A DNA stretch of 36,186 bases from Flavobacteriales bacterium (GTDB lineage Bacteria > Bacteroidota > Bacteroidia > Flavobacteriales > Flavobacteriaceae), in assembly GCA_027024205.1 (NCBI GenBank), contig JALVST010000074.1, positions 1-36,186 on the forward strand, read 5' to 3'. Each line of letters opens with the position of its first letter. Position 1 is the first letter of the stretch. This document shows, in pieces, positions 5,896 through 13,227 of the stretch. The notes under the pieces are model-generated. The model searched no databases. It saw only the letters and a program-made list of their open reading frames with translations, and had not been told where the DNA came from. The translations under genes and the position numbers were made by a program.

Positions 5896-6837
5896 ATGAC
5901 AGAACGTTTATTGGAAATCAACGGCATCGACCCTATTATATTAAGCGGTGTTAAAAACGAAAACATCAATTTTTTAAAAGAACATTTTCCAAAAATCAAA
6001 ATCGTTTTCAGAGGTAATCAAATCAAAATTTTCGGAGAACCGGAGATTTTGGACGAATTTGAACAAAAATTGGATTTGATTTTGAGTCATATTCAAAGAT
6101 TTAATAAGCTTGACAAAGAGAGTATCGAACAAATATTGGTGACTAATCATCATGAATACCTTGATTTTGTTGATAATGATGACGTTATCGTCCACGGTGT
6201 CGGTGGGCAATTGATTAAACCGCAAACCCCCAATCAACGAAAAATCGTTGTGTCTGCCCGTAAAAACGATATGATTTTTTTAGTTGGTCCAGCCGGGACT
6301 GGAAAAACTTTTGTCAGTGTAGCTTTGGCGGTTCGAGCCTTGAAAAACAAAGAAGTTAAACGCATTATTTTGACCCGTCCAGCGGTTGAAGCCGGTGAAA
6401 ATCTCGGTTTCTTACCCGGCGACTTGAAAGAAAAACTCGACCCGTACTTGCAACCCTTATACGATGCCCTGCGGAGTATGATTCCTTTCGAACGCTTGGA
6501 AAGTCATCTCGAAAAAGGTATCATTCAGATTGCCCCGCTTGCTTTTATGCGCGGTCGTACGCTTGACAATGCTTTTGTCATTTTGGACGAAGCCCAAAAT
6601 ACCACTCACAATCAAATGAAAATGTTTTTAACCCGGATGGGTAAAAATGCCAAATTTATCATCACCGGTGACCCGGGGCAAATAGACCTGCCCCGCAAAC
6701 AAGTATCTGGACTTAAAGAGGCATTGGGAATTTTAAAAAATATCAAAGGTATCGATGTCATCCACTTGTCCGAACGCGACGTCGTGCGCCACCGGTTGGT
6801 CAAAAAAATTATCGATGCTTACAAGACTTTGGATTAA
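5896..6837 (+). CDS. phoH: PhoH family ATPase (YbeZ type)
   Basis: 313-residue cytosolic P-loop ATPase of the PhoH/YbeZ family, linked in other bacteria to RNA metabolism and ribosome maturation together with YbeY. The N-terminal 100 residues form the small KH-like domain typical of this type. The C-terminal ATPase has Walker A GPAGTGKT (131-138), the TRPAVEAGE segment (160-168) and Walker B VILDEAQN (228-235), followed by TGDPGQIDLP. Length and motifs are standard. The ATG is preceded by an A-rich leader without a Shine-Dalgarno sequence. It is transcribed divergently from the SAM-hydrolase gene. No ybeY lies in the window. Confidence 0.95.
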   Translation: MTERLLEINGIDPIILSGVKNENINFLKEHFPKIKIVFRGNQIKIFGEPEILDEFEQKLDLILSHIQRFNKLDKESIEQILVTNHHEYLDFVDNDDVIVHGVGGQLIKPQTPNQRKIVVSARKNDMIFLVGPAGTGKTFVSVALAVRALKNKEVKRIILTRPAVEAGENLGFLPGDLKEKLDPYLQPLYDALRSMIPFERLESHLEKGIIQIAPLAFMRGRTLDNAFVILDEAQNTTHNQMKMFLTRMGKNAKFIITGDPGQIDLPRKQVSGLKEALGILKNIKGIDVIHLSERDVVRHRLVKKIIDAYKTLD

Positions 6838-7094
6838 TATCTTATATAATGTTGATTATAAATTATTTCGAATTTGTTTTTTTGTTTGAAGTATTGAATG
6901 TGAAAAACGGAAGTCCCTTTGTAAAGAAAATCCCAAAAACTTATCATAAGCCCTTTGCTATGTAAAAATTTTTTTATTTTCTTATCAAATGAGATATTCG
7001 TGTATTTGTGGCGATTTGTAAAAAAAGAAATATTATTTAGCTGTAAAAATGATAAAAATATAACCTATAATTGTAAAATATTTAAACAAAAAAA

Positions 7095-8576
7095 ATGAAA
7101 ATCAAAATCTTTTCTCTAACTTTTCTCGGCATAATATTGTTTATGGGATGTTCATCAACAACAACTGTTCCGAAGGAAAAAGCACAATATCAAACCGGCT
7201 CTATTACACAAAATCAATCCAAACCTAATATCTTGATTATTTACGTAGATGATTTGGGGTATCACGATTTGAGTTTGACCGGTTCCAAATTATATGATAC
7301 CCCCAATATCGATAAATTAGCCAATGAATCGGTACAATTTACCAATGCTTATGCCGGATATCCACGTTGTGTGCCGTCCCGTTACAGTATGTTTACGAGT
7401 ACCTATCCTGTCAATGAAAACAAAGGGGATGTCAATAATATTCCGGTTAGTAAAAATATCATTAAGCAATTTAATAAAGCAGGATATAACACATATTATG
7501 TAGGAAAATGGCACTTGTGCCGGCGCGGTACAACTCCTAAAGCATTCGGATTTACAGATACTTACGCCGCAGGTGCAGCGGGAGGTGTTGCATCCCGTTT
7601 TTACCCGTTTAATGTGGACAAAAAAGGAAATCCGGGTAAATATACCGTTCCGGACATCAAAGAAAACAGTAAACCCGGAAATTATGCCGCTGACAAATTA
7701 ACCGAAGCAACCATTAATTTTATCAAAAACAATCCGGAAGATAAACCTTTTTTGGCCGTTTTGGCATTCTATGCCGTTCATACCCCCATCGAAGCCAAAG
7801 AAAAAGATATGGAGCGAAATAAAGCCGAATTGAAAAATATTGACTTTGGCAATATGCCGGAATATATCATTAAAGACGGGGTAACCAAGATGCGGCAAGA
7901 TAATACCGCTTATGCCGGTATGGTTGAAAATGTTGATGAAAATGTCGCCAAACTATTAAAAACCTTAAAAGATGAAGGCATTGCCGATAATACCATCATT
8001 GTATTTTCATCTGATCACGGCGGTTTGTCAAACCGTGGGATTAACAGTTATCGTGAACTGGCAACGTCTAATTTTCCGTTACGTGCCGGTAAAGGACACG
8101 TCTATGAAGGTGGTATCAAAGTGCCTTTGTTTGTAAAATGGGGCAACCATTTCAAACCAAGAGTAGATGATAAATCCATAATTTTGCAAATGGACATATT
8201 GCCCACACTTTTGGATTTGGCAACCGGTAAACAAGTTAAAGGAATTGATGGCAAGTCTTATAAAAAAGTATTGACCGGTCAAGAAACTTGGGAAAACAGA
8301 ACCGTTTTTTGGAGCAAACGCAAAGAAAGACCCAACCGTACCGGTGACCATAAAGCATATGTAGTCCGTTCGGGTGATTATAAACTCATTGACTTTTTTG
8401 ATGATAACGAAATAGAATTGTACAACCTGAAAAAAGATCCGGGAGAAAATAATAATTTGATTGACCAAATGCCCGGAAAAAAAGCCGAATTACAAGCTTT
8501 ACTCAACCAATGGAAAAAAAAATACTTAGTGCCAGAAAAATTATATACCAGTAAAAAGAAAAAGCATAAAAAATAG
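7095..8576 (+). CDS. Sulfatase, lipoprotein, Cys-type (S1 family)
   Basis: 493-residue type I sulfatase that hydrolyses sulfate esters, probably on a carbohydrate. A lipoprotein signal ends FMGC with Cys19 as the lipid site, placing it in the periplasm or on the surface. The metal site begins VDDLG (Asp52, Asp53). The formylglycine motif is RCVPSR with Cys92, so the protein must be matured by an FGly-forming or anaerobic sulfatase-maturating enzyme, and neither is encoded here. Other family positions visible are GKWHL (Lys138, His140), AVHTP (His229) and SSDHGG (Asp307, His308). The tail is Lys-rich. It is the first gene of a four-gene plus-strand block. I found no strong -7 element in the 257 nt upstream. 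The exact substrate cannot be read from the sequence. Confidence 0.94.
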   Translation: MKIKIFSLTFLGIILFMGCSSTTTVPKEKAQYQTGSITQNQSKPNILIIYVDDLGYHDLSLTGSKLYDTPNIDKLANESVQFTNAYAGYPRCVPSRYSMFTSTYPVNENKGDVNNIPVSKNIIKQFNKAGYNTYYVGKWHLCRRGTTPKAFGFTDTYAAGAAGGVASRFYPFNVDKKGNPGKYTVPDIKENSKPGNYAADKLTEATINFIKNNPEDKPFLAVLAFYAVHTPIEAKEKDMERNKAELKNIDFGNMPEYIIKDGVTKMRQDNTAYAGMVENVDENVAKLLKTLKDEGIADNTIIVFSSDHGGLSNRGINSYRELATSNFPLRAGKGHVYEGGIKVPLFVKWGNHFKPRVDDKSIILQMDILPTLLDLATGKQVKGIDGKSYKKVLTGQETWENRTVFWSKRKERPNRTGDHKAYVVRSGDYKLIDFFDDNEIELYNLKKDPGENNNLIDQMPGKKAELQALLNQWKKKYLVPEKLYTSKKKKHKK

Positions 8577-8663
8577 TAAACACAAAAAATACGGTTTTTA
8601 AATAAACCTTAACCGGCTGTTTTTCAAAAGGGCGAATATAAATAATTATTATTAATTAAAACA

Positions 8664-10082
8664 ATGAACAAAATCCTCTTACTGCTTGCTATTTTTTGGT
8701 TGGCATCTTGCAAATCTACACAAGATAAAACCGGAGAGCCGGGACGTCCCAATATTGTTATTTTATTCGTTGACGATTTGGGCTATCACGATCTGAGTTG
8801 TAAGGGATCACGAATTTATCAAACGCCAAACATCGATAATTTTGCCAATCAAGCCGTTGATTTTACCAACGCCTATGCCAATTATCCGCGTTGCGTCCCG
8901 TCGCGTTTTGCACTGCTAACGGCAAGCTATCCTATCCAAAACGGCTATGTCCCCGATGACGGTTTTGCCATATCAACAATTCCCGATAAAAAAAATGTCG
9001 TAAAAGCTATAGAACAAGCCGGCTATCAAACCGCCTACTTCGGAAAATTTCATCTGGGCGATAAAAACACTATACACCGGTTGGGTTTTCAAACAACATT
9101 AGGGGCCGGTCATGTCGGTTCGCCAATCAGTTATTTTCAACCTTTCAACATGCCTAAAAGAAAAAATGCCAAGGTCAAAAAAAAACCCATTCCCGATTTG
9201 GATAATTTGTCAAAAAAAGGCGATTACCTGACTGATATTCTGACGAATCAAGTCATAAAATACATCAAAAACAGAAATCCGGAAAAACCTTTTATGGTAA
9301 TGTTGGCTTTTTATGCCGTACACCAACCTTTGGAAGCCAAAAAAGACTTGATAGAAAAAAACAAAAAAGAAATAGCCAATTTTGATTTTGGCAATCAACC
9401 GGAATATATCAAGGAAGGCGCCGGACGCACCAAAATACGTCAAGACAATCCGGTTTATGCCGCCATGGTTGAAAACATGGACACTAATATTGGTAAAGTC
9501 TTACAAACGTTGAAAGAGTTGGATTTGGAAAAAAATACCATTGTTATCATTACGTCCGACCATGGCGGCTTATCCAATGACGGGTTCAAAAGGCGAAACT
9601 TGGCAACCTCCAATTATCCGCTGCGTGCCGGTAAAGGCTGGCTCTACGAAGGCGGCGTACGTGTCCCTTTGTTTATCAAATGGCCCCATCATTTCAAACC
9701 GCATATTGACAGTACTTCCGTCATCATGTTAATGGATATTTTTCCTACTTTACTCGATATAACACAACACAGCACCAAACCGGTAGATGGCAAAAGTTTT
9801 TTACCGGTCTTGCAACAAAAAGAAAATTGGACAAACCGCACCGTTTATTGGCACGAGCCGCATGCACGACCCCGTAATACAGGAGAAAGTAAAGCATCGG
9901 CTATCAGAATGGGAGATTACAAATTAATTGACTTTTACAAACAAGAAAAAGTGGAATTGTATAACATTAAAAAAGATATTTCGGAACAGCACGATTTATC
10001 AGACGAGATGCCGGAAAAAAAAGCACAATTATTACAACAATTACGTAAATGGAAAAAAGAGAATAATTTAATTGAGCGGTAA
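8664..10082 (+). CDS. Second sulfatase, lipoprotein, Cys-type (S1 family)
   Basis: 472-residue paralogue of the preceding sulfatase, 87 nt downstream. The lipoprotein signal ends LASC (Cys16). VDDLGYHDL (Asp37, Asp38), NYPRCVPSRF with the formylglycine Cys77, GKFHLG (Lys128, His130) and TSDHGGLSN are all present. The two proteins share motifs and overall layout along their whole length, which points to tandem duplication. They differ enough, including in the insert between the FGly site and the DHGG motif, that they may act on different linkages. It lies directly before the SGNH esterase genes. I see no separate strong promoter, so the block is probably transcribed together. Confidence 0.94.
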   Translation: MNKILLLLAIFWLASCKSTQDKTGEPGRPNIVILFVDDLGYHDLSCKGSRIYQTPNIDNFANQAVDFTNAYANYPRCVPSRFALLTASYPIQNGYVPDDGFAISTIPDKKNVVKAIEQAGYQTAYFGKFHLGDKNTIHRLGFQTTLGAGHVGSPISYFQPFNMPKRKNAKVKKKPIPDLDNLSKKGDYLTDILTNQVIKYIKNRNPEKPFMVMLAFYAVHQPLEAKKDLIEKNKKEIANFDFGNQPEYIKEGAGRTKIRQDNPVYAAMVENMDTNIGKVLQTLKELDLEKNTIVIITSDHGGLSNDGFKRRNLATSNYPLRAGKGWLYEGGVRVPLFIKWPHHFKPHIDSTSVIMLMDIFPTLLDITQHSTKPVDGKSFLPVLQQKENWTNRTVYWHEPHARPRNTGESKASAIRMGDYKLIDFYKQEKVELYNIKKDISEQHDLSDEMPEKKAQLLQQLRKWKKENNLIER

Positions 10083-10231
10083 AATTCTTGAAAATATAAT
10101 TTTATGAAACCGACATGATTAAAAAAATTATTAAACACACAAAGCCTGTCCCGGCCGATGTCTGGAGAAATGATTATTTTAATCATCAAAGGTTACATCT
10201 GACATTGATGTTAAAATTAAAAAATAAACAG

Positions 10232-11302
10232 ATGAAAAAATTAATACTTAGTACCATTATTTTATTGATGCTTTTAACCCAAAGTGCTTGTTCCGTACAA
10301 AAATCAATTGCTGCCAACGACAGACGAATAAATTACTATGGTAGCCGGTTTGTCAAGTATCAAAACGGTGAATTAATACTACACCGGCATTCTGACAAAG
10401 TCTATCAAGCTACAACACGCGACAACCTTTTTAATCCGTTAAAAGCCCGTTCGGGAAGCGGTATCAAACTGGAATTTAAAACGGCAAGTCCACATATCAA
10501 ATTACGTTTCAAAATTGCAAAAGGCTGGCACAAAAATCCGGTTTTTAGTGTTTTTCAAAATGGTAATTTTCAAAAAAATTATTCTTTTGTTTACGGTGAT
10601 GATAAAATCATTACACTTGATTTACAATCAGAAACACCCGGCGAGCCAGTAGTTTATACAATTACCTATCCTATACGTACCGATGTGCATTTTTTAGGAA
10701 TGACCTTGGATGAAAAATACAAACTTTTGAAACCCGATAAGAAAAAACAACCTGTTTATGTGGCGTTTGGCAATTCCATCACACATGGTACAGGACAGCA
10801 AACCACCCCGCAAACATATGCCTATCAGCTTGCAGAAAAAACGAATTGGGAACTTTATAATCTGGCAGTTGGAGGTAGTAAAACATCGCCCGTTATGGCT
10901 GAAATGATACGGGATGATTTTGATAGAATAGATTATATGACAATACTTACCGGCTTTAACGACTACAATGGCGCCGGTGTTGACACCTTGACTTTTGCCA
11001 ACAGGTATCGTCAAGTTTTATCCACCATAAGAGAAACGCATCCTGACACAAAGATTTACATAATTAATTTGACCACAACCAAAATCAAGTATTCTAAAAC
11101 ATCCGGTATCCCGATAGAAGATTTTAGAAAAGTAATCAGAAATATCGTCAAAATAAGACAAGCAAAAGGTGATAAAAATATTTTTCTGATTGAAGGGAAA
11201 AAACTAACATCGGAAGCCGACTTAAACGACAACGTACATTTGTCAGTTGAAGGTTCTAGAAAATTTGCAGAAAAATTATATCATCAAATAAATTCATTAT
11301 GA
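10232..11302 (+). CDS. SGNH/GDSL esterase, putative lipoprotein
   Basis: 356 residues from the ATG at 10232, chosen because it begins a clean signal (MKKLILS...QSAC, probable lipid Cys20). The frame could open at 10115, but that would add 39 charged residues before the signal. A beta-rich N-terminal domain (about 35-160) precedes an SGNH hydrolase domain: FGNSITHG with Ser182, the Gly of AVGG (about 214), Asn243 of GFNDY, and Asp333/His336 of DNVH, so all four blocks are intact. The arrangement resembles two-domain GDSL esterases (Lipase_GDSL_3 with an N-terminal beta-sandwich), many of which deacylate sugars. The next gene overlaps by 4 nt (ATGA), which indicates translational coupling. An esterase beside sulfatases suggests removal of acyl decorations from the same glycan. 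Confidence 0.85.
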   Translation: MKKLILSTIILLMLLTQSACSVQKSIAANDRRINYYGSRFVKYQNGELILHRHSDKVYQATTRDNLFNPLKARSGSGIKLEFKTASPHIKLRFKIAKGWHKNPVFSVFQNGNFQKNYSFVYGDDKIITLDLQSETPGEPVVYTITYPIRTDVHFLGMTLDEKYKLLKPDKKKQPVYVAFGNSITHGTGQQTTPQTYAYQLAEKTNWELYNLAVGGSKTSPVMAEMIRDDFDRIDYMTILTGFNDYNGAGVDTLTFANRYRQVLSTIRETHPDTKIYIINLTTTKIKYSKTSGIPIEDFRKVIRNIVKIRQAKGDKNIFLIEGKKLTSEADLNDNVHLSVEGSRKFAEKLYHQINSL

Positions 11303-12531
11303 AACAAACGACTTTTATTACATTACTTCTATTGTTCAGCCTAAACACAAAGGCTCAGCAAACAAAGAACATATTGTTTATTGGGAACAGCATTACTTAT
11401 TATAACAATCTACCGGTTACATTTGAAAACATTGCCAATTCCAAAGGCGACCCGACTTCTGTTACAATGTATGCACCCGGTGGTCACGGTTTTGCCGACC
11501 ATGTCAACGACCAGAATGTTTATGCCAAATTCAAAGAAAAAGTCTGGGATTTTGTCGTCTTACAACCCGGTTCCGGTGAATCATTCGGCTCAACACAGCC
11601 CATATCCGCCACCTTAACCAGAGCCTTACAGCTCAAAGATTCCATTTTAAAATACAGTCCTTGTGCCAAAATTTTATTTTATGAAATTTCTAATGGCGTT
11701 ACCGGTAGTGCCGCCTCCGATCTGGCAAATTATAACAATACGATGGATGTGGTCAGAAGTAATTTTGAATATTGGGCAGACAATACCCAATTATATTTTG
11801 CTCCGGTTGGCGAAGCTTTTAGAGAAAAATGGAATGCCGACCAAACCGATATGCTTTGGATAAGTACCTATAATATTCATCCCAATGCCAAAGGTTCCTA
11901 TTTGGCTGCTTGTGTTTTTTACGCAAGTATTTACCAAAAACCATCCTACGGCACTACGGTAACCGGCCCGTTAAACCAGGCCGAAGCAACTGCATTGCAA
12001 CAAATAGCCGATGAAAAAGTTTTACTCCATAAACCGGATTGGCGGATAAATGTTTACAATCTTTATACGGATTTTGATTACAATATTAATGGATTAGAAG
12101 TCAATTTTACTAATTTGTCTGCCAATGCAGATAGCTTTCTTTGGGATTTCGGAGACGGCCATACTTCAACTGATACCAATCCCGTACATCAGTATGCCAC
12201 TACCGGTACTTATCAAGTGAGCTTGACCGCAACCAAAGGCGATTGTGTCGAAACAGTGACTGAAAATGTCTCTCCCGGAAGTTCCGGCATTTCAGATCAT
12301 TCGAATATTCGTCTTAACTTATACCCCGTTCCCGCAGATAAAATTATAAAAATTGCAATAAATCAGCCCGGCAAATACAACTATCAAATACTGGATATCA
12401 CAGGCAAAATTTTAAAGACAGTAAGTGAGAACCTGATTGATGTCAGCGACTTGACCGGTGATATTTATTTGATTAAAATAACCAATAAAAACACTGGAAT
12501 AAGCCTTATCAAACTTTGGTTAAAGAAATAA
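11299..12531 (+). CDS. Secreted SGNH-like hydrolase with PKD domain and T9SS sorting domain
   Basis: 410 residues. A signal peptide ends near Ala19 (NTKA-Q). A DUF4886-like SGNH domain follows (about 23-245), with ILFIGNSIT (Ser31), GGHG (61-64), LQPGSGES (89-95) and a His194 in IHPNAKG. A PKD domain has LWDFGDGHTS (281-290) within about 265-322. The last ~70 residues (LNLYPVPADK to KLWLKK) form a type IX secretion sorting domain of the kind cleaved at the cell surface. The start overlaps the preceding esterase stop in ATGA. It is predicted to be exported across the outer membrane while its partners are lipoproteins, giving a surface enzyme that may bind or hydrolyse a polysaccharide. The substrate is unknown. 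Confidence 0.83.
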   Translation: MKQTTFITLLLLFSLNTKAQQTKNILFIGNSITYYNNLPVTFENIANSKGDPTSVTMYAPGGHGFADHVNDQNVYAKFKEKVWDFVVLQPGSGESFGSTQPISATLTRALQLKDSILKYSPCAKILFYEISNGVTGSAASDLANYNNTMDVVRSNFEYWADNTQLYFAPVGEAFREKWNADQTDMLWISTYNIHPNAKGSYLAACVFYASIYQKPSYGTTVTGPLNQAEATALQQIADEKVLLHKPDWRINVYNLYTDFDYNINGLEVNFTNLSANADSFLWDFGDGHTSTDTNPVHQYATTGTYQVSLTATKGDCVETVTENVSPGSSGISDHSNIRLNLYPVPADKIIKIAINQPGKYNYQILDITGKILKTVSENLIDVSDLTGDIYLIKITNKNTGISLIKLWLKK

Positions 12532-12639: not shown

Positions 12640-13227
12640 ATGTTAGGTTTAAAAGCACAAACACCGGAAGCTTGGGCACACATAGTCGTTCAAGATTTGG
12701 AAACATTTCTGACCGACCATGCATACAACGAAATAAAAGCTGCACAATCTGCGATGGCGGTTATCAATCATCGTCCTAACGAAGTGGAATTTGTTAATAC
12801 CATGTCAGCCTTAGCAATTGAAGAGATGCAACATTTTGAGATGGTGTATGAGCGAATACAACAATTAAATCTGAAATTGGGACAAGAATCTCAAAATACT
12901 TATGCCATGCAACTGCGTAAATTTTTTCCACGCACCAAAGACCGGGAAGAAAAATTTTTGCAAAAACTGATGTTATCGTCATTGATGGAAGCCCGCAGTT
13001 GCGAACGTTTCAGTATCCTCATACCAGTCATTAAGAAATCTTATCCGGAATTAGCCGGTTTTTACGAAGACTTATTCGTCAGTGAAGCCCGTCATTACAG
13101 GATTTTTCTGGAATATGCCCGTAAATTCGGTGGTAGAGAACGGATTGATACCATTTGGGAGCAACTGCTTTCTTATGAAGCGGAACTCATAAACAGCTTG
13201 GGCAAAAATGCATTGGTTCATGGTTGA
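12640..13227 (+). CDS. miaE: tRNA-(ms2io6A37) hydroxylase, MiaE family
   Basis: 195 residues from the ATG at 12640. A TTG immediately before could extend it by one codon but is less likely. It is a ferritin-like di-iron monooxygenase that hydroxylates the isopentenyl group of ms2i6A at position 37 of tRNAs, using O2. Carboxylate and His ligands occur in the expected spacing: Glu31, Glu62xxHis65, Glu117, and Glu149xxHis152. Length is typical of the non-enterobacterial MiaE-like group. The start lies shortly after a TAACTTTG element. The following gene overlaps it by 8 nt (or 20 nt with the upstream start). It is the only clearly O2-dependent enzyme in the window, alongside PFOR. Confidence 0.93.
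   Translation: MLGLKAQTPEAWAHIVVQDLETFLTDHAYNEIKAAQSAMAVINHRPNEVEFVNTMSALAIEEMQHFEMVYERIQQLNLKLGQESQNTYAMQLRKFFPRTKDREEKFLQKLMLSSLMEARSCERFSILIPVIKKSYPELAGFYEDLFVSEARHYRIFLEYARKFGGRERIDTIWEQLLSYEAELINSLGKNALVHG

What the first reader, a model, noticed from the sequence alone, without database searches (positions are those of the whole stretch)
7095..12531. Small sulfatase/SGNH-esterase locus without SusCD: candidate glycan de-decoration system
Two tandem lipoprotein sulfatases, a lipoprotein SGNH esterase and a T9SS-exported SGNH-PKD protein lie in a row on one strand. The last two are coupled through ATGA. Sulfatases beside esterases usually mean removal of sulfate and acyl groups from a polysaccharide, but this block has no SusC/SusD pair, no glycoside hydrolase or lyase and no regulator. 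It may serve one specific sulfated, acylated substrate, or trim products made by a system elsewhere. I know of no named system with exactly this gene set, although that cannot be settled here.
Basis: partly seen in the sequence, partly recalled or inferred. Interest (0 to 1): 0.62.

Follow-up and report, generated by a model that had tools for sequence, protein, structure and literature searches.

The report
Displaced half of a sulfated-glycan locus
These four genes for stripping sulfate and acyl groups from a polysaccharide look like one broken-off piece of an ordinary marine sugar-degrading gene cluster whose importer, regulator and a chain-cutting enzyme sit elsewhere in the same genome, so the block is real but not a new stand-alone system.

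Summary
The four genes are real: two Cys-type S1 sulfatase lipoproteins, an SGNH hydrolase lipoprotein (likely start 10232, not 10115) and a T9SS-exported SGNH-like/PKD protein overlapping it by ATGA. The block has no SusCD, glycosidase or regulator, but it is not a separate system. In two other Flavobacteriaceae genera and one genus-mate (G009), orthologues of the sulfatases and the lipoprotein esterase lie in a large SusCD PUL with further sulfatases and, in the two genera, GH10 directly after SGNH. In the window's genome that PUL is in three pieces: HTCS-SusC-SusD-three sulfatases (C33), the window block (C74), and GH10-sulfatase-beta-helix (C69). GH10 occurs in 3 of 13 genus genomes, exactly those with a near-full SGNH gene. 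Each of six shared sulfatase groups shows ((G000,G010),G009), and dN/dS is 0.07-0.16: the scattered set is co-inherited and under purifying selection. Split and remnant PULs are known (Bacteroides xylanisolvens rPUL 70). One oddity: no recognised sulfatase maturase was found in this draft genome or two genus-mates.

The parts
7095..8576 (+). S1A: S1-type sulfatase, lipoprotein (by eye), 493 aa; Cys-type signature CVPSRYSMFTS at residue 92
   Evidence: PF00884 198 bits; signature; nearest solved chains 6ust and 9fo1; orthologues in G010, G009, G206, G323
8664..10082 (+). S1B: S1-type sulfatase, lipoprotein (by eye), 472 aa; Cys-type signature CVPSRFALLTA at residue 77; an old paralogue of S1A, not a recent tandem copy
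   Evidence: PF00884 202 bits; nearest solved chain 9fo1, S1_16; tree
10232..11302 (+). SGNH/GDSL hydrolase, probable lipoprotein, 356 aa, N-terminal domain plus SGNH domain; Ser182, Gly215, Asn243, Asp333 and His336 invariant in 6 of 6 aligned homologues
   Evidence: PF13472 68 bits; alignment A1; match to SsfX3 3skv over residues 24-325, E 3.7e-9
11299..12531 (+). SGNH-like (DUF4886-like) domain + PKD + T9SS type A sorting tail, 410 aa; ATGA overlap with the SGNH gene
   Evidence: DUF4886 below its cut-off; the usual Asp three residues before the His is a Tyr (my reading)
5896..6837 (+). Left flank: PhoH-like ATPase; the phoH | S1A junction is shared with G010
12640..13227 (+). Right flank: MiaE-like protein; in the G008 bin (contig C245) an SGNH gene end lies directly before miaE

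Best explanation
The block is the displaced 'de-decoration' module of a sulfated-glycan PUL that was once contiguous and is now in three pieces. Proposed working: the HTCS on C33 senses an oligosaccharide and switches on all three pieces (inferred). T9SS-exported enzymes, among them the window's SGNH-PKD protein and the C69 beta-helix protein, act outside the cell (sorting tails shown; site inferred). SusC/SusD on C33 imports oligosaccharides (families shown; cargo inferred). Lipoproteins S1A, S1B and SGNH remove specific sulfate and acyl, probably acetyl, groups so that GH10 and other enzymes can finish the chain (families and catalytic residues shown; order, place and specificity inferred). 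The target is most likely a sulfated, acylated xylose-containing glycan, probably also fucosylated; no fucosidase of the GH29 family was found in this genome.
For: Homologous PUL with SusCD in two other genera, G206 and G323, and in genus-mate G009, whose contig C308 alone carries SusC, SusD, S1F, S1E, S1D, S1A, the DUF4886-like gene, S1C, GH29, S1B and SGNH. In G000: SusC, SusD and S1F-S1E-S1D on C33 are 69-80% identical to G009's, with a 1306-aa HTCS directly upstream; GH10-S1G-sp123-T9_403-beta-helix on C69. GH10 in 3 of 13 genus genomes, the same three as a full or near-full SGNH gene. For each of the six sulfatase groups shared by G000, G010 and G009 (A, B, D, E, F, G) the tree gives ((G000,G010),G009). 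dN/dS 0.07-0.16 for the window genes and the C33/C69 genes tested. Precedent: rPUL 70, a PUL remnant controlled by the HTCS of another PUL (PMC4855328, abstract and passages).
Against: No expression data: co-regulation with C33 and C69 is untested, and no shared promoter motif was found. The substrate is unknown; xylose rests mainly on one GH10, and fucose on a GH29 seen only in G009 and G010. SusC and SusD of G206 and G323 are only 34-42% identical to G009's and their beta-helix proteins 32%, so the outer genera share the sulfatase core better than the importer. The DUF4886-like gene was not seen in the G206 or G323 stretches. The window genome and its genus-mates are drafts of 20-400 contigs. 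G009's link between contigs C308 and C157 passes through a 127-bp sequence also present at a contig end of the G008 bin, so SGNH-GH10 adjacency rests on G206 and G323.
Confidence: 0.8

Rival explanations
1. Stand-alone de-decoration operon: the four genes serve one specific sulfated, acylated substrate independently of any PUL.
For: Compact same-strand block with an ATGA overlap and no SusCD, GH or regulator; all four genes are open and under purifying selection.
Against: Orthologues of S1A, S1B and SGNH lie inside a SusCD PUL in G009, G206 and G323; much of that PUL is retained in the same genome.
Confidence: 0.08
2. Decaying remnant: the block is left over from a PUL being lost and contributes little.
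For: S1C and GH29 are not in the block, and GH29 was not found in the genome; G010 has a decayed tail of the DUF4886-like gene with stops; 9 of 13 genus genomes show no match to the SGNH protein; no FGE or anSME was found.
Against: All four window ORFs are open with most catalytic residues in place; dN/dS 0.075-0.164 against G010 and G009; SusCD, HTCS and GH10 are retained.
Confidence: 0.1
3. Artefact: a misassembled or contaminating contig brings the block next to phoH and miaE.
For: Draft assembly of 151 contigs.
Against: The phoH-S1A junction recurs in G010 and an SGNH-miaE junction in the G008 bin; flanking genes match genus-mates.
Confidence: 0.02

Closest known systems
Bacteroides xylanisolvens rPUL 70 with PUL 43 (PMC4855328; abstract and passages seen)
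   Same: A cluster that is a fragment of a larger PUL, whose core lacks its own SusCD and regulator, working with a PUL elsewhere in the genome that has an HTCS and a GH10; the complete form is present in related strains.
   Different: There the HTCS link was shown by gene knockout and the substrate is xylan from plants; here the fragment is sulfatases and esterases, the split is three-way, and co-control is inferred.
Marine Flavobacteriia PULs predicted for sulfated xylose-rich glycans (GH10 + sulfatases) and for FCSP (GH29 + sulfatases) (PMC6298971, PMC6794258; passages seen)
   Same: SusCD, several S1 sulfatases and GH10 in one PUL (G206, G323); in G009 also GH29.
   Different: I saw no description of this gene set (S1A/S1B + SGNH + GH10 + beta-helix) in those passages; the window genome has it scattered and without GH29.
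S1_16 carbohydrate sulfatases such as AMOR_S1_16A (9fo1) and the H. hathewayi enzyme (6ust) (PMC11760155; passages seen)
   Same: Nearest solved sequences for S1B and S1A; the metal-binding Asp pair, FGly Cys, H125, H201 and K287 align.
   Different: W79 and H149, which the paper gives as characteristic of S1_16, are not conserved; metal ligand N264 is a His in both window proteins.
SGNH hydrolases with an N-terminal domain: SsfX3 (3skv) and endoglucanase E (2wao/2wab; CE2 by recall)
   Same: Match to 3skv over most of the length and weak partial matches (E 0.006-0.011) to endoglucanase E.
   Different: Low similarity; no activity known for the window protein.

Membership tests
Polysaccharide utilization locus (SusCD type) | susC/susD pair in the cluster | tested here: not met
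   None in the block; met on C33 of the same genome
Incomplete or remnant PUL | Carbohydrate-active cluster lacking SusCD/regulator and homologous to part of a complete PUL | tested here: met
   Orthologues of S1A, S1B and SGNH inside SusCD PULs in G009, G206 and G323
Incomplete or remnant PUL | Control by the regulator of the distant PUL | not testable with these tools
   Needs RNA-seq or an HTCS deletion
S1 (FGly) sulfatase | Sulfatase domain and C/S-x-P/A-x-R signature | tested here: met
S1 (FGly) sulfatase | Known maturase (FGE or anSME) in the genome | tested here: not met
   No TIGR03942 match in G000, no SPASM match; PF03781 gives only GldJ and GldK. The genome is 97% complete, so absence is not proven, and this is a requirement for activity rather than for membership
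Subfamily S1_16 | Closest characterised relatives are S1_16 | tested here: met
   S1B best 9fo1, 300 bits; S1A best 6ust, 252 bits, and 9fo1, 251 bits
Subfamily S1_16 | W79 and H149 (AMOR_S1_16A numbering) | tested here: not met
   No Trp aligns with W79 (poorly aligned or unaligned stretch); H149 is Ser in S1B and Gly in S1A in the phmmer alignments to 9fo1
Subfamily S1_16 | Assignment by SulfAtlas | not testable with these tools
   SulfAtlas is not among the libraries on hand
SGNH hydrolase (lipoprotein) | Ser, Gly, Asn and Asp-x-x-His blocks (recalled) | tested here: met
   S182, G215, N243, D333 and H336 invariant in 6 of 6 sequences of A1
DUF4886 / SGNH (T9SS protein) | Pfam score over the gathering cut-off and Asp-x-x-His block | tested here: not met
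   22.9 against 26.7 bits; Tyr at the Asp position in both sequences of A2
T9SS cargo | C-terminal sorting domain | tested here: met
   PF18962 32.3 bits (cut-off 27) and TIGR04183 27.8 (23); GldK and GldJ present in G000

The most novel reading that the evidence does not exclude
The sulfatases of this scattered PUL are active in a lineage that has neither known formylglycine-generating enzyme. G000, G009 and G010 carry Cys-type S1 sulfatases with intact signatures (7 of the 10 PF00884 matches in G000; 6 in each of the fetched G009 and G010 stretches), yet none of the three shows an anSME over the cut-off or any SPASM match, and their only FGE-domain proteins are the T9SS parts GldJ and GldK. 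If real, a third, unidentified maturation route serves them.
Probability: 0.08. Interest if true: 0.75.

Novelty: new member of a known kind. Interest (0 to 1): 0.3.

Why it matters
It shows that a sulfatase/esterase cluster without SusCD need not be a new system: comparison with relatives finds the importer, regulator and a glycosidase in the same genome. A cluster finder that requires SusCD within one locus would miss two of the three pieces here. If the missing maturase is confirmed, this genus becomes a place to look for a further formylglycine-forming system (a third one is suspected in E. coli: PMC8379841, passage).

Tried and rejected
Structure prediction of the T9SS SGNH-PKD protein gave mean pLDDT 41.5 from a two-row alignment and was not used. 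The GHy protein of G323 gave pLDDT 50.3 from three rows; Foldseek's first hits were GH30 xylanases, then other barrels, at TM (query) 0.25-0.34, taken only as 'probably a glycosidase barrel'. phmmer gave no PDB relative for GHy or GHx465 beyond the sorting tail; the C69 beta-helix protein matched a solved xylosidase (3vst; GH120 by recall) over 45 residues only. The sigma-70 scan found 36 sites against 19.2 (sd 4.4) expected, spread over both strands and mostly inside genes, one of them (6919-6947, +) before S1A; terminator-like sites were 8 against 5.8, none of them between the four genes. I draw nothing from either. The Bacteroidota-type pattern (recalled) had 8 matches in the window against 3.4 expected, none on the + strand before 24827. 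Recent tandem duplication of S1A/S1B was rejected: both groups contain the other genera. Literature searches for this gene set: (no paper); for maturase-less sulfatases: 61; for split PULs: 68 (off topic), 80; for S1_16: 82. No description of this gene set was seen in the listings and passages; only open-licence papers are held.

An idea not kept: that the PUL arrived between a Kef/TrkA-type antiporter and miaE, which are neighbours in PUL-free G007 (53 bp apart) and near neighbours in G012 (one small ORF between). In G000 the antiporter borders the GH10 module but on its 5' side, which does not fit a simple insertion.

Full report
OBSERVATION. The window is the whole contig C74 of a draft genome of 2.38 Mb in 151 contigs, 97% complete. 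The two sulfatases carry the Cys-type signature (CVPSRYSMFTS, CVPSRFALLTA). The SGNH lipoprotein most likely starts at 10232: its signal peptide begins there, and the G010 orthologue starts at the equivalent Met. Its catalytic blocks are invariant in six of six homologues. The last protein ends in a T9SS sorting domain and overlaps the SGNH stop codon by ATGA. Gaps are 87 bp (S1A-S1B) and 149 bp (S1B-SGNH), so a single transcription unit is plausible but not shown.

CONSERVATION. With the SGNH lipoprotein as query, 4 of 13 genus genomes match (G000, G010 at 80%, G009 at 77%, and a 51-residue piece at a contig end of G008). In a draw of 397 genomes of the family, 33 match at E <= 0.001, but apart from the window's own genome only three match better than 1e-40: G206 (57%), G323 (two copies, 51 and 48%) and G018 (35%). 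A scan of one genome per species for 84,980 species confirmed 5 loci: four are the contigs of G010, G009, G323 and G206, the fifth is Labilibacter sediminis. The scan used two short peptide patterns, so it undercounts distant relatives. In Labilibacter (21 kb asked for, 19 kb held) the sulfatase order is absent, though a sulfatase fragment lies at the end of the stretch; in G018 the gene lies at a contig start, so only its downstream side was seen, without sulfatases.

THE CLUSTER IN RELATIVES. Letters S1A-S1G, sp123 and so on are my own labels. In G009 contig C308 reads SusC, SusD, S1F, S1E, S1D, a 465-aa T9SS protein, S1A, DUF4886-like, S1C, GH29, S1B, SGNH; contig C157 begins with the SGNH end and continues GH10, S1G, sp123, T9_403, beta-helix. 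G206 reads FGE (opposite strand), HTCS, SusC, SusD, an unidentified ORF, S1E, S1D, S1A, T9_609, S1B, SGNH, GH10, S1G, beta-helix, a Calx-beta protein, sp123, GH5. G323 reads HTCS, SusC, SusD, S1F, S1E, S1D, S1A, two ORFs, S1B, SGNH, SGNH, GH10, T9_529, GHy, beta-helix, metallophosphoesterase, S1G. The window's S1A, S1B and SGNH thus belong to this cluster in three lineages. Identity to G009 is 47-67% for S1A, S1B, SGNH, GH10 and the other shared sulfatases (72% for the S1G piece of G323), but only 34-42% for SusC and SusD and 32% for the beta-helix protein. The DUF4886-like gene was seen in these clusters only in G009, and GH29 only in G009 and G010.

THE SPLIT. In G000 the same parts lie on three contigs. 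C33 has HTCS (1306 aa; Reg_prop, Y_Y_Y, HisKA, HATPase, Response_reg, HTH_18), SusC, SusD, S1F, S1E and S1D on one strand, SusC to S1D being 69-80% identical to G009's; 53 bp on follows a Trans_reg_C protein that is also beside S1D in G010; beyond the HTCS are a further sulfatase and a GH5. C74 is the window block. C69 has GH10, S1G, sp123, T9_403 and beta-helix. The window block has assembled non-PUL genes on both sides, so it is not adjacent to the others. G010 is also split: SusC-SusD-S1F-S1E-S1D on C57; on C4 GH10-S1G-sp123-T9_403-beta-helix-CytTPR and, about 5 kb further, past genes ending in phoH, S1A-S1C-GH29-S1B-SGNH. GH10 occurs in 3 of 13 genus genomes, G000, G009 and G010. GH29 occurs in 2 of 13, G009 and G010, not in G000. 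SusD-family proteins as such are common in the genus (12 of 13), so SusD presence alone says nothing; it is the C33-type one that matches G009's. A match to the window's last protein over its full length was found in G000 and G009 only; G010 keeps a decayed tail with stop codons at the end of SGNH. Nearly all other matches of that search, which reached all 13 genomes, fall on the PKD and sorting-tail region.

SHARED HISTORY AND SELECTION. A 30-row sulfatase tree gives ((G000,G010),G009) in each of the six groups A, B, D, E, F and G. S1A and S1B are sister groups that both contain G206 and G323, so the tandem pair is ancient. Three of these forks fall below the strict support mark (the G000-G010 pairs of S1B and S1F, and the S1G group of three), and deep joins between groups carry a long-branch warning. 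dN/dS is 0.075 and 0.164 (S1A against G010 and G009), 0.116 and 0.095 (S1B), 0.118 and 0.153 (SGNH), 0.141 (DUF4886-like against G009), and 0.074-0.163 for S1D, S1E, S1F, SusD, S1G and GH10 against G010; the controls phoH and miaE give 0.025 and 0.033. dS is near or above 1 for most pairs, which makes the ratios rough, but decay is not indicated.

FUNCTION. Shown: families, signatures and export signals. GH10 of C69 keeps the motifs WDVVNEAY and ISEF (their roles as acid/base and nucleophile are recalled) and is closest to solved beta-xylanases. Inferred: the target. GH10, a beta-helix protein with a short match to a xylosidase, and GH29 in G009 and G010 point to a sulfated glycan with xylose and perhaps fucose. 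Published predictions for marine Flavobacteriia describe PULs for sulfated xylans and for FCSP (PMC6298971, PMC6794258; passages). Against this, the S1_16 activities reported are on galactose or GalNAc sulfates (PMC11760155; passages), which does not match a xylan. The window sulfatases lack two S1_16 hallmark residues, so I do not file them as S1_16. My confidence in the substrate class is about 0.4.

MATURASE PROBLEM. S1 sulfatases are thought to need FGly. No TIGR03942 match exists in G000; 6 of 13 genus genomes, G009 among them, have weak matches of 24-32 bits, none near the cut-off of 349; of 14 control genomes 12 match and 2 exceed the cut-off. No SPASM match was found in G000, G009, G010, G206 or G323, against 8 of 14 controls. 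PF03781 hits in G000, G009, G010 and G323 are GldK and GldJ by NCBIfam. G206 has an additional PF03781 protein (240 bits, over no NCBIfam cut-off) with a C-x4-C pair (typical of FGE by recall) beside its PUL regulator. With that protein as query all 13 genus genomes match, mostly through frames of GldJ/GldK size; G005 has one clearly stronger match (74.5 bits), and G002 and G007 have extra weak ones (26.5 and 19.2 bits). Incomplete assemblies may explain the absence, but three genomes (97, 91 and 96% complete) agree.

COMPARISON AND VERDICT. It works like, and by descent is, part of a SusCD PUL. As a cluster by itself it fits the incomplete/remnant PUL described for B. xylanisolvens rPUL 70, whose genes fell when the HTCS of PUL 43 was knocked out (PMC4855328; abstract and passages). 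Marine surveys also count clusters lacking SusCD as incomplete PUL subtypes (PMC6298971; passage). New member of a known kind; interest 0.3.

Noticed in passing
G000, G009, G010 (whole genomes); L047, L053, L045: No recognised sulfatase maturase (FGE or anSME) beside the T9SS proteins GldJ and GldK, although Cys-type sulfatases are present; G206 has an FGE-like protein next to its PUL regulator.
   Followed up: partly
G000:C69 (L036:3719-7222) against G010:C4 (L037:12370-15873): S1G and GH10 have lower synonymous divergence between G000 and G010 (dS 0.26 and 0.62) than the other genes compared for that pair (0.94-1.52), which suggests more recent exchange of this module.
   Followed up: no
L016:1-127, L017 end, L019 end: Contig ends of G009 (C308, C157) and G008 (C245) share the same 127 bp inside SGNH, as at an assembly-graph branch: one branch leads to GH10, the other to miaE.
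   Followed up: yes
L025, L027 (G012, G007) and L036: In PUL-free genus-mate G007 a Kef/TrkA-type antiporter lies 53 bp from miaE, and in G012 one small ORF apart; in G000 the antiporter borders the GH10 module and miaE borders the window block.
   Followed up: partly
L014:17979-18281: G010 has a decayed tail of the DUF4886-like gene with stops at the end of SGNH, so the adjacency of the window was probably once present there.
   Followed up: yes
window:10083-10231: The S1B-SGNH spacer is 149 bp against 21 bp in G010 and holds an in-frame upstream ATG (10115); origin of the extra bases unknown.
   Followed up: no
L021:7775-8926: The S1B orthologue of G323 is listed from a Met after the FGly Cys; its N-terminus may be in another frame (sequence error or truncation).
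   Followed up: no
L028:8023-8676 and L038:10115-10768: A 217-aa protein with a Trans_reg_C DNA-binding domain follows S1D on the same strand in both G000 and G010: a possible second regulator.
   Followed up: partly
L035 (Labilibacter sediminis):6986-9490: An 834-aa protein contains an SGNH region related to the window's SGNH lipoprotein, next to a GHy-type protein.
   Followed up: no
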